Origin: an uncultured Ignavibacteria bacterium
GTDB taxonomy: Bacteria > Bacteroidota > Ignavibacteria > Kapaibacteriales > Kapaibacteriaceae
Length of the DNA: 64,000 bases
Reading direction: 5' to 3'
Assembly: GCA_937870915.1 (NCBI GenBank)
Contig: CALMZQ010000003.1
Coordinates: 62,001 to 126,000, forward strand
Shown here: positions 14,421 through 17,116 of the stretch, one piece after another
Layout: each line of letters begins with the position of its first letter
Numbering within the stretch: the first letter of the stretch is position 1
Position numbers and translations under genes: made by a program
Notes under the pieces: generated by a model
Database searches by the model: none
What the model was told of the DNA's origin: nothing
What the model saw: only the letters and a program-made list of their open reading frames with translations

Positions 14421-15041
14421 TCACAGTGTACCGAAAAGTCTGTCGCCCGCATCACCAAGCCCCGGCATGATATAGCCGACATCGTTGAGCTGTCGGTCAA
14501 GGGCAGCAGAGACAATCAAGACGTTGGGATGTTCATCTTGAATGCGCGTGATTCCTTCAGGAGCGGCAATCAAACACGCTGCGATGATGCGCTGATGGGG
14601 GAGTTCACGGAGCAGACCGAGGGTTGCCGTCATACTTCCGCCCGTTGCCAACATGGGGTCGATCACAATAAACGTTGTTGCACTGTCTGAGGGCGGGAGG
14701 TTTCGATAATATTCGGCCGGGGCAAGAGTTTCCTCGTTGCGTTTGAGTCCAATGAAACCTACGGAGGCATCCGGACAGATCGTTAGGAACGGGTCGAGAA
14801 GTCCAAGGCCAGCTCTGAGAATAGGAACGATCACCACCCTGCCATCGATCACCGAACACGTCGTTGTTTCGATCGGAGTTGTGACGGATATCTCCTTGCT
14901 AGGTATGTGACGCGAGGTCTCAACAGCGAGATGAAGTCCGATGCGATGAACAGCGGCCCGAAAAACGTCGATAGGAGTGGAACTGTTACGGATAGTTGCT
15001 AGATCCGTAGACAAGGCCGTACCTGAGAGGATGATCGACAT
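14421..15041 (-). CDS. upp: Uracil phosphoribosyltransferase
   Basis: The 206-aa protein matches the usual length of Upp. The PRPP-binding loop is visible as VIDPMLATGGSMTATL, and the uracil-binding C-terminal segment as YIMPGLGDAGDRLFGT. The segment VPILRAGLGLLDP is also diagnostic. It converts uracil and PRPP to UMP for pyrimidine salvage. It lies 3 nt after the tatD-fusion stop, the fourth gene of the dnaX-bcp-tatD-upp run. Confidence 0.95.
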   Translation of the reverse strand: MSIILSGTALSTDLATIRNSSTPIDVFRAAVHRIGLHLAVETSRHIPSKEISVTTPIETTTCSVIDGRVVIVPILRAGLGLLDPFLTICPDASVGFIGLKRNEETLAPAEYYRNLPPSDSATTFIVIDPMLATGGSMTATLGLLRELPHQRIIAACLIAAPEGITRIQDEHPNVLIVSAALDRQLNDVGYIMPGLGDAGDRLFGTL

Positions 15042-15044
15042 TGC

Positions 15045-16649
15045 TTAGAACTGCGGGAAGAACATGATGGAAAGCCGAGGGATCGAATATATCGTTGTGA
15101 TGTCGGCTTTATCCACGGAATGCTGCGAGGGATTCTCAGGATTGTAATGCAGCATCACTCCCGGTCGATTTGGGTCTTCAACGATGTAGGTCTGATCTTC
15201 ACCCTCGATTACAGGATACGTAGCGATGATCACATCGCGGTTTGTACCAAACATGAAGTTAAACCGAACATTGACCATTGGATAGAAGAGGCCAATGGGA
15301 GTTGGAATGTTTACACCGATCCCCATTCCAACGTTGACACCAAACTGCGTGCTCGATACCTTCCCATCGCTCTGTGCTGCAAACGTTGCACCTGCTTGAG
15401 GAACAAAGTTCACCTTGTTGTAGGGGTTAAGTGAGTAGAGGAACGACCCCTCTATGATGTTCGTAACGATAGGTGCTAGGCCATACAACTCACGATCGCC
15501 AACGTTCTCTGTATAGAGGTAGGTTGCTTCGAGGATGATACGGTCTGAGGCCTGGTACATCGCGGTACCGCCAAGGCTTAGGAGTCCGTTATACGAGAAC
15601 GAGGCAGACGGACCACTATCCTGTGGGAATGTAACCCAGCTTTGTGGAGTGGTTGTTCCTTGTATAGCCCGATAATACCGTTGGGTATACGTCTGCTGCT
15701 CTACAACCGTATTTGAACCGATAGTGATGCCAAAGGCGTACGTACGCGGCTTGACGAATTTTGACCAGCCGATCGAATCGATCTCATAGTTCTCGATAGC
15801 GATCTCCCAATCCGTGTCATTCTCGTAGTCTTCGTCGATAGGTTTCTTGGGCTGCGCCGAGGCGGCTAGCGACCACAGGAGAAGAACGACCGACAGGGCG
15901 AAGAATCGCCGTGCCGTTGCCGTTGTTGTGGTCAGGACTTCCATCAGGGACATACCTTTGATCTCCGCTAGTTTCTCCGCAACGAGGCGGACATAGAATG
16001 GTTCGTTTCTGGTGCCTCGATGAGGCACCGGCGTCATATACGGGGCGTCTGTCTCGATCATCACTCGACCAATCGGTACACGTTGCACCACATCGTTGAG
16101 TGTAGACTTCTTGAACGTGATATTCCCCGTGAACGAGATATGCATGTCTAGGGAAAGCGCACGTTCAAGAACCGAAACATCACTTGAGAAACAGTGGAGG
16201 ACTCCGCGAAGAGTTCCGTCCTGCTCCTCCTCAATAATGTTGAGAACGTCCTGATCCGAGTCGCGATTATGCACGATGATCGGCAGGTTATGCCGTTTCG
16301 CAATGCGAATCTGCTCGCGAAAGTACAACTTCTGCACGTCGGGACTGCAGAAGTCGTAGTAGTAGTCCAGGCCGATCTCACCAATGGCTACAACCTTTGG
16401 TTCTGTGCATTGGGCTTCTACGTCTGCGAGATCCGACTCGTTCACCTCTCCGGCATGATGAGGGTGAATGCCCACACCACGGACGAGGAATGGGTACGAA
16501 TCCACAATGGATTTGAGTTTCGCTCTGCGTGCGGGCTGGATATCTGGGACCACGATCATCTCAATACCAGAATCGTGGGCGCGGTGCAACATTTCGTCGC
16601 GATCGTCATCAAATGCATCCGCGTCGATATGGGAGTGCGTATCGATCAC
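15045..16649 (-). CDS. tatD: TatD-family nuclease fused in frame to a predicted outer-membrane protein
   Basis: One open frame of 534 codons starts with GTG at 16649, overlapping the bcp stop (GTGA). Residues 1-252 are a full-length TatD metal-dependent DNase: DTHSHID, GEIGLDYYY, IVHNRD, LHCFSSD and ETDAPY give the metal ligands, and it ends with the family-typical TATARRFFAL. With no stop, the frame continues as SVVLLLWSLAASAQ, a perfect signal-peptide core and cleavage site, then about 270 residues of alternating polar/hydrophobic strands (YRAIQGTTTPQSW, FVPQAGATFAA, FYPMVNVRFNFMFG) ending in FPQF, like an outer-membrane barrel. An internal ATG at 15944 (M236), with AAAGG about 10 nt upstream, could start the second protein with tatD's last codons doubling as its signal peptide. 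Confidence 0.75.
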   Translation of the reverse strand: MIDTHSHIDADAFDDDRDEMLHRAHDSGIEMIVVPDIQPARRAKLKSIVDSYPFLVRGVGIHPHHAGEVNESDLADVEAQCTEPKVVAIGEIGLDYYYDFCSPDVQKLYFREQIRIAKRHNLPIIVHNRDSDQDVLNIIEEEQDGTLRGVLHCFSSDVSVLERALSLDMHISFTGNITFKKSTLNDVVQRVPIGRVMIETDAPYMTPVPHRGTRNEPFYVRLVAEKLAEIKGMSLMEVLTTTTATARRFFALSVVLLLWSLAASAQPKKPIDEDYENDTDWEIAIENYEIDSIGWSKFVKPRTYAFGITIGSNTVVEQQTYTQRYYRAIQGTTTPQSWVTFPQDSGPSASFSYNGLLSLGGTAMYQASDRIILEATYLYTENVGDRELYGLAPIVTNIIEGSFLYSLNPYNKVNFVPQAGATFAAQSDGKVSSTQFGVNVGMGIGVNIPTPIGLFYPMVNVRFNFMFGTNRDVIIATYPVIEGEDQTYIVEDPNRPGVMLHYNPENPSQHSVDKADITTIYSIPRLSIMFFPQF

Positions 16650-17116
16650 GCGCCAAACTCGGAGAGGGCTTCAAACACGGCATCAACATGCCCCTTCACT
16701 TTCACCTTTTCAAACGTACGAGTGATAACACCCTTAGGATCGATGAGATAGGTAGTGCGGACAACACCCATATAGGTTCTGCCATACATGGACTTCTCCT
16801 TCCACACATCGAACGATTCACAGATGGAATGGTCTGGGTCTGAAAGGAGCGGAAAGGTAAGGTCAAATTTCTTCTTGAACTTGTCGTGTGATACAACAGA
16901 GTCCGGGCTCACACCAACAACCTGAACGCCCTTGCGTTTGAGGCGCTTCAAGGAGTCACGAAAGTCACAGGCTTCCGCTGTACACGCCGTTGTATCGTCC
17001 TTTGGATAGAAGTACAGAACCGTCCAAAGCCCCTTACAATCCTTCAATGCGAATGATCCATTTCCATCCGTGGCTCCTTTGAATGCAGGTGCCTTTGTTC
17101 CTTCTGCCAGTGCCAT
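16646..17116 (-). CDS. bcp: Thioredoxin-dependent peroxiredoxin (BCP/PrxQ type)
   Basis: The 156-aa protein has the peroxidatic cysteine C45 and resolving cysteine C50 in DDTTACTAEACDFRD, the spacing of the BCP/PrxQ class, and the conserved FYPKDDT just before. It reduces peroxides using thioredoxin, in the cytoplasm. It follows dnaX after 5 nt and overlaps the GTG start of tatD by 4 nt, so it belongs to the dnaX operon. The active site has TACT where TPGCT is more common. Confidence 0.92.
   Translation of the reverse strand: MALAEGTKAPAFKGATDGNGSFALKDCKGLWTVLYFYPKDDTTACTAEACDFRDSLKRLKRKGVQVVGVSPDSVVSHDKFKKKFDLTFPLLSDPDHSICESFDVWKEKSMYGRTYMGVVRTTYLIDPKGVITRTFEKVKVKGHVDAVFEALSEFGA

What the first reader, a model, noticed from the sequence alone, without database searches (positions are those of the whole stretch)
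15045..16649. TatD nuclease runs in frame into an outer-membrane protein whose signal peptide lies at tatD's end
The TatD part is complete and ends at the usual place, yet there is no stop; the next residues are a perfect signal peptide core with ASA|Q cleavage. A signal peptide at the middle of a cytoplasmic enzyme cannot work if translated from the GTG, so the second protein is probably made from an internal start (ATG 15944, M236, or ATG 15950) with AAAGG upstream. That would make the final codons of tatD do double duty.
Basis: partly seen in the sequence, partly recalled or inferred. Interest (0 to 1): 0.65.

Follow-up and report, generated by a model that had tools for sequence, protein, structure and literature searches.

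The report
Membrane protein started inside tatD
In a whole order of mostly uncultured Kapabacteria-like bacteria, the gene for the cytoplasmic nuclease TatD has no stop codon and runs straight into an outer-membrane barrel protein, and most of these genomes keep a second ribosome start site inside tatD, so one reading frame appears to supply proteins for two different cell compartments.

Summary
Window 15045-16649(-) is one open frame of 534 codons: complete TatD, a signal peptide cut at A|Q, and a predicted 8-stranded outer-membrane barrel. It is not a sequencing error: of 123 genomes of the order, 114 are open through the junction, 1 has a stop (G249), and 8 have no usable junction. The sister family f16 has the fusion too. 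In G249 tatD ends normally between the same neighbours, and the barrel gene stands alone elsewhere with its own ATG and signal peptide.

An internal start is strongly supported by comparison. In the window's family 21/21, and in the largest family 48/49, have an in-frame ATG/GTG near the end of tatD with a Shine-Dalgarno (SD) sequence upstream, far above synonymous shuffles, other tatD ATGs and unfused TatDs. The start has moved at least six times, each time with an SD. In the window it is ATG 15953-15951 (M233) with GGAG 15966-15963, not M236.

Families f4-f7 mostly lack a recognisable start plus SD yet keep fusion and signal; there the full-length chain, cleaved by signal peptidase, may be the source. 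No expression data exist.

The parts
15045..16649 (-). single open frame TatD + signal peptide + barrel, 534 codons, GTG start (16649-16647), TAA stop (15047-15045)
   Evidence: same open frame in 113 other genomes of the order
15900..16649 (-). TatD nuclease domain, residues 1-250; D3, H5, H7, E91, H127, H152, D201 invariant in 27 relatives
   Evidence: PF01026 E=8e-78, TIGR00010, invariant columns
15963..15968 (-). internal Shine-Dalgarno GCGGAG (core GGAG 15966-15963), 9 bases before the internal ATG
   Evidence: CGGAG at the same place in 18 of 21 genomes of family f1; synonymous-shuffle test
15951..15953 (-). proposed internal start codon ATG, M233
   Evidence: in-frame ATG/GTG with SD in 21/21 of f1 and 48/49 of f2
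15855..15953 (-). signal peptide of the barrel precursor, MSLMEVLTTTTATARRFFALSVVLLLWSLAASA, cut before Q266; its first 18 codons are also TatD's C-terminal helix
   Evidence: sequence; Ala-Gln at the predicted cut in most relatives
15048..15854 (-). mature outer-membrane barrel, Q266-F534, periplasmic-side helix then 8 strands, C-terminal Phe
   Evidence: AlphaFold pLDDT 88, Foldseek to OmpA/NspA/OmpW, PF13505 in 12 of 27 relatives
16646..17116 (-). upstream gene bcp (peroxiredoxin-like); its TGA overlaps the tatD GTG (GTGA), so tatD translation may be coupled to it
14421..15041 (-). downstream gene upp (uracil phosphoribosyltransferase-like), same strand, a few bases after the barrel stop

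Best explanation
One reading frame carries two translation starts. Ribosomes entering at the tatD start (GTG overlapping the bcp stop) make TatD-signal peptide-barrel, because no stop separates the parts. Other ribosomes bind the GGAG inside tatD, start at M233 and make the barrel precursor alone. Its signal peptide begins with TatD's own last helix (TARRFF), is cut by signal peptidase I at ASA|Q, and the barrel goes to the outer membrane. Shown by comparison: the fused frame, the conserved and moving start plus SD, and the separability of the two proteins (G249). Inferred: that initiation really happens there, the cleavage, the outer-membrane location, and that the full-length product also exists and supplies TatD activity, perhaps held on the inner membrane by the signal segment.
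For: In-frame ATG/GTG with SD in 21/21 f1, 48/49 f2, 10/13 f9, 3/3 f8, 1/1 f10. Synonymous-codon shuffles: SD <= -5 kcal/mol at a junction ATG in 20/20 f1 (4.4 expected, z=-7.7), 42/49 f2 (13.7, z=-8.6), 6/13 f9 (2.3, z=-4.0), 0 of 500 shuffles as strong. Other in-frame ATGs of the same tatD genes have such an SD in 9% (f1) and 12% (f2), junction ATGs in 91% and 79%; 0 of 55 unfused TatDs has Met at -9 against 42/49 f2 and 13/13 f9. At least six relocations of the start on the TatD tree, each with an SD; about 3e-6 by the background rate if independent. Weaker local RNA structure than in shuffles in 19/21 f1 and 34/48 f2. In G249 the barrel is a separate gene with its own start and signal peptide.
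Against: Families f4, f5, f6 and most of f7 have no SD plus start at the junction, f5 has no in-frame ATG there at all, f3 is mixed. SD use at ordinary genes is weak in these genomes by a crude test, and Bacteroidia ribosomes are reported not to recognise SDs (PMC9976891). Sequences are related, so shuffle z-scores are optimistic. No transcript, ribosome or protein data.
Confidence: 0.82

Rival explanations
1. Polyprotein only. The barrel is made solely as part of the full-length chain: TatD folds in the cytoplasm, the internal signal peptide inserts as a signal-anchor with the N-terminus inside, signal peptidase I cuts at A|Q, and TatD stays as a tail-anchored inner-membrane nuclease. The internal SD plus ATG is unused.
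For: No stop between the parts in 114 genomes. Families f4-f7 keep fusion and signal largely without a recognisable internal start.
Against: Does not explain the SD plus ATG that moves together at least six times, nor Met at -9 in 55 of 62 f2/f9 sequences against 0 of 55 unfused TatDs.
Confidence: 0.12
2. The SD-like sequence is a pause site that slows the ribosome so the emerging signal peptide can be recognised; it is not a start.
For: SD sits just upstream of a signal peptide in f1, f2 and f9.
Against: A pause site needs no ATG/GTG at 5-9 bases; Met enrichment at the matching place is strong and the pair moves together. Local RNA structure is relaxed around the ATG.
Confidence: 0.04
3. A programmed frameshift at the junction releases normal TatD from some ribosomes.
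For: T-rich FF/LF codons at the junction.
Against: No conserved early stop in either shifted frame in f1 or f5; the f1 frame-2 stop about 23 codons on is explained by Asp-Asp/Glu codons (inference). Would not explain the SD plus ATG.
Confidence: 0.02
4. Sequencing or assembly error hides a stop codon.
For: The window comes from a draft assembly of 233 contigs.
Against: The same frame is open in 113 other genomes of the order and in the f16 genomes examined.
Confidence: 0.005

Closest known systems
In-frame internal translation starts, e.g. endolysin CTP1L (PMC4777826); IF2/infB and others from general knowledge
   Same: SD plus ATG/GTG inside a coding frame, giving a shorter C-terminal product alongside the full-length protein; conserved among relatives.
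   Different: Here the shorter product is a different kind of protein (outer-membrane barrel) with its own signal peptide, and the full-length frame starts with an unrelated cytoplasmic enzyme. Initiation is not yet shown by experiment.
Fused genes of tatD, e.g. tatD running into a radical-SAM domain (seen in Ignavibacteria relatives)
   Same: tatD's 3' end joined in frame to a second domain at the same place.
   Different: Partner there looks cytoplasmic and no signal peptide lies between. Here the join includes a signal peptide and the two halves belong on different sides of a membrane.
Eight-stranded outer-membrane barrels, OmpA/NspA/OmpW type (PF13505)
   Same: Fold match (best E 1e-6; TM by target about 0.6 for NspA and OmpW); PF13505 hit in 12 of 27 relatives; C-terminal F or W in most.
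   Different: Window sequence is below family cutoffs; extra helix before the barrel; its start lies inside tatD.
Viral-type polyproteins separated by signal peptidase (general knowledge)
   Same: Internal signal peptide following a cytoplasmic domain in one frame.
   Different: Not shown that the full-length chain is cleaved here; a separate internal start is present in most families.

Membership tests
TatD DNase family | TatD_DNase / TIGR00010 profile over the full domain | tested here: met
   PF01026 E=8e-78, residues 2-250 of 253 positions; TIGR00010 252 bits against cutoff 206
TatD DNase family | metal-site His/Asp/Glu residues conserved | tested here: met
   H5, H7, E91, H127, H152, D201 invariant in 27 relatives; which residues bind metal is general knowledge
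TatD DNase family | nuclease activity | not testable with these tools
   needs an assay
Outer-membrane beta-barrel protein (OmpA/OmpW-like fold) | eight-stranded antiparallel barrel | tested here: met
   AlphaFold model pLDDT 88 with eight long strands; Foldseek to OmpA, NspA, OmpW
Outer-membrane beta-barrel protein (OmpA/OmpW-like fold) | Pfam PF13505 above its gathering score | tested here: inconclusive
   window 15.1 bits against 28.7; 12 of 27 relatives hit, best E 6e-7
Outer-membrane beta-barrel protein (OmpA/OmpW-like fold) | Sec signal peptide with signal peptidase I site and C-terminal aromatic residue | tested here: met
   A|Q at the predicted cut in most of 117 sequences; 81 of 113 closed frames end in F or W; no signal-peptide predictor was available
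In-frame internal translation initiation | conserved start codon with SD inside the coding frame, beyond chance | tested here: met
   for f1, f2, f9; not met in f4-f7
In-frame internal translation initiation | shorter product or initiation shown by experiment | not testable with these tools
   needs N-terminal peptides or ribosome profiling
Signal-peptidase-processed polyprotein | full-length chain inserted and cleaved at the internal signal | not testable with these tools
   compatible with f4-f7, no direct evidence

The most novel reading that the evidence does not exclude
In this order, at least in families such as f5 that have no internal ATG, TatD-signal-barrel is a true bacterial polyprotein: an internal signal peptide is inserted after a 250-residue folded cytoplasmic enzyme, signal peptidase I separates the two, TatD remains as an inner-membrane-anchored nuclease, and the barrel goes to the outer membrane. 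In other families an internal start adds extra barrel.
Probability: 0.35. Interest if true: 0.8.

Novelty: new variant of a known kind. Interest (0 to 1): 0.64.

Why it matters
Two proteins for opposite sides of the cell envelope share one stop-less frame, kept across nearly a whole order and a sister family. It shows how a signal peptide can grow out of the last helix of a cytoplasmic enzyme. It is a clear natural case of coding sequence doing double duty as a ribosome binding site, with built-in controls: families where the start moved, families without it, and one genome (G249) where the two proteins are separate genes. It also matters for annotation: a gene caller would report one cytoplasmic nuclease and miss a conserved outer-membrane protein. 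The apparent use of SD sites here bears on how far the SD-blind behaviour of Bacteroidia ribosomes extends in the phylum.

Tried and rejected
Sequencing error: rejected, the frame is open throughout the order. My first reading, that no internal Met was conserved and this was purely a polyprotein, was dropped once codons were read: the start moves and an SD goes with it. Programmed frameshift: no conserved shifted-frame stop. Genome-wide SD use was tested only crudely because starts were guessed from ORFs (first script failed). Literature: no paper in the library holds both Kapabacteria and TatD, and searches for the same arrangement found nothing equivalent. A pattern scan of the window found no second ORF with an internal signal peptide of this form.

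Full report
What is there. The frame lies on the minus strand, 16649 down to 15045, GTG to TAA, 534 residues. Residues 2-250 are TatD (PF01026, E=8e-78; TIGR00010 above its cutoff), with D3, H5, H7, E91, H127, H152 and D201 invariant in 27 relatives. TatD ends in TARRFFAL and continues without a stop into SVVLLLWSLAASA|Q and a 269-residue mature part. AlphaFold models the second part as a helix plus eight long strands (pLDDT 88). Foldseek matches OmpA, NspA and OmpW. The chain ends in F; most relatives end in F or W. In the fusion model the junction 254-266 is low confidence and the two domains are separate.

How widespread. Titles of related contigs name Candidatus Kapaibacterium, Ignavibacteria and Bacteroidetes MAGs (NCBI places Kapaibacterium in the phylum Bacteroidota). 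Of the 123 genomes of the order, 116 match the fused alignment at E<=1e-80. Of these 114 are open through the junction, G224 is cut by a contig end before it, and G249 has a stop. The seven others have contig-edge fragments, only a weak TatD-like match, or nothing. Family f16 of the same class carries the fusion in the five genomes examined. In other families of the class the barrel profile finds at most marginal matches, and TatDs of Ignavibacteria end normally or run into what looks like a radical-SAM domain. The neighbours dnaX and bcp (upstream) and upp (downstream) are shared by many relatives.

The exception. In G249 tatD ends with a stop (HFFDVK*) between bcp and upp. The barrel homologue is on another contig as a 251-aa gene with its own ATG and signal peptide, beside genes that look like glycosyltransferases. 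So neither protein needs the fusion. Its barrel is about 37% identical to those of several families, not clearly closest to its own, so whether it is the relocated original is open.

The internal start. In family f1 (the window's), 18 genomes have ATG at residue 233 with CGGAG nine bases upstream. In three genomes M233 is gone, and ATG or GTG stands two codons later with AAAGGA or GAGGAG five or six bases upstream. In families f2, f9, f8 and f10 the ATG is usually eight codons further on (position -9 from F250) with GAGGT or similar upstream. Shuffling synonymous codons within each tatD gives 4.4 SD-bearing starts for f1 (20 of 20 seen), 13.7 for f2 (42 of 49) and 2.3 for f9 (6 of 13), with none of 500 shuffles as strong. 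Other in-frame ATGs of the same genes have such an SD in about 10%, and none of 55 unfused TatDs has Met at -9. On a tree built from the TatD part upstream of the junction, the start position changed repeatedly. I count at least six relocations in f1 and f2 (L014; L012/L019; the L167 group; L169; L181; L215), each with an SD of -4.5 kcal/mol or better. The background rate of 0.12 gives about 3e-6 if they are independent. Predicted local RNA structure is also weaker than in shuffles (19/21 f1, 34/48 f2). Relatedness makes the shuffle statistics optimistic; the separate relocations suffer less from that.

What does not fit. Families f4, f5, f6 and most of f7 have no SD plus start at the junction. 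f5 has no in-frame ATG there at all, f3 is mixed, and f16 has ATG with a weak SD. All keep a hydrophobic segment after TatD. SD use at ordinary genes is weak in these genomes by a crude test, and Bacteroidia ribosomes are reported not to recognise SDs (PMC9976891). Matches consistent with an intact 16S 3' end (GGATCACCTCCTT) are found in several of these genomes, though I did not confirm that they lie in 16S genes.

Mechanism. Best supported: two starts in one frame, the internal one giving the barrel precursor whose signal peptide begins in TatD's last helix. Since there is no stop, TatD can only be made as TatD-signal-barrel. I infer that this chain also inserts with TatD in the cytoplasm and is cut by signal peptidase at A|Q, leaving TatD on the inner membrane. 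That would explain the SD-less families, but nothing here shows it. Glutamine after the cut is the pattern known from Bacteroidetes and also reported as high in Ignavibacterium album (PMC5837995).

Relation to known things. Internal in-frame starts are known; endolysin CTP1L is a well-proven case with the same SD plus start logic (PMC4777826). Fusions of tatD to other domains are seen elsewhere. The new combination is an enzyme and an outer-membrane protein sharing one stop-less frame across an order, with a signal peptide that overlaps the enzyme's C-terminal helix. I found no paper describing it in the open library; most subscription journals are not in that library. I therefore file it as a new variant of a known kind.

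Noticed in passing
L089:3001-4827 (approx.): In an uncultured Ignavibacteriae MAG, tatD runs in frame into a signal peptide and a different envelope-like protein that does not match this barrel profile (E=0.02). Possibly an independent tatD-exported-protein join.
   Followed up: partly
L056-L060, L062-L070, L072-L074 and others: Many Ignavibacteria and some deltaproteobacterial TatDs run in frame into what looks like a radical-SAM domain at the same junction, so tatD's 3' end is fused repeatedly.
   Followed up: no
window 15852-15857 (-) and relatives: Glutamine directly after the predicted signal peptidase cut in most relatives: the Q-rule pattern described for Bacteroidetes, here in a Kapabacteria-like lineage.
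   Followed up: partly
L032 (JAGFIZ010000106.1): A record titled 'Bradyrhizobiaceae bacterium' carries a locus of this Kapabacteria-like family; the MAG looks mislabelled.
   Followed up: no
L196, L217, L219, L220, L221, L226 (family f5): These GC-rich relatives (including Bacterium HR21) keep fusion and signal segment but have no in-frame ATG at the end of tatD; how the barrel is made there is unexplained.
   Followed up: partly
window 16646-16649 (-): The bcp stop and tatD start overlap (GTGA), suggesting coupled translation of bcp and tatD.
   Followed up: no
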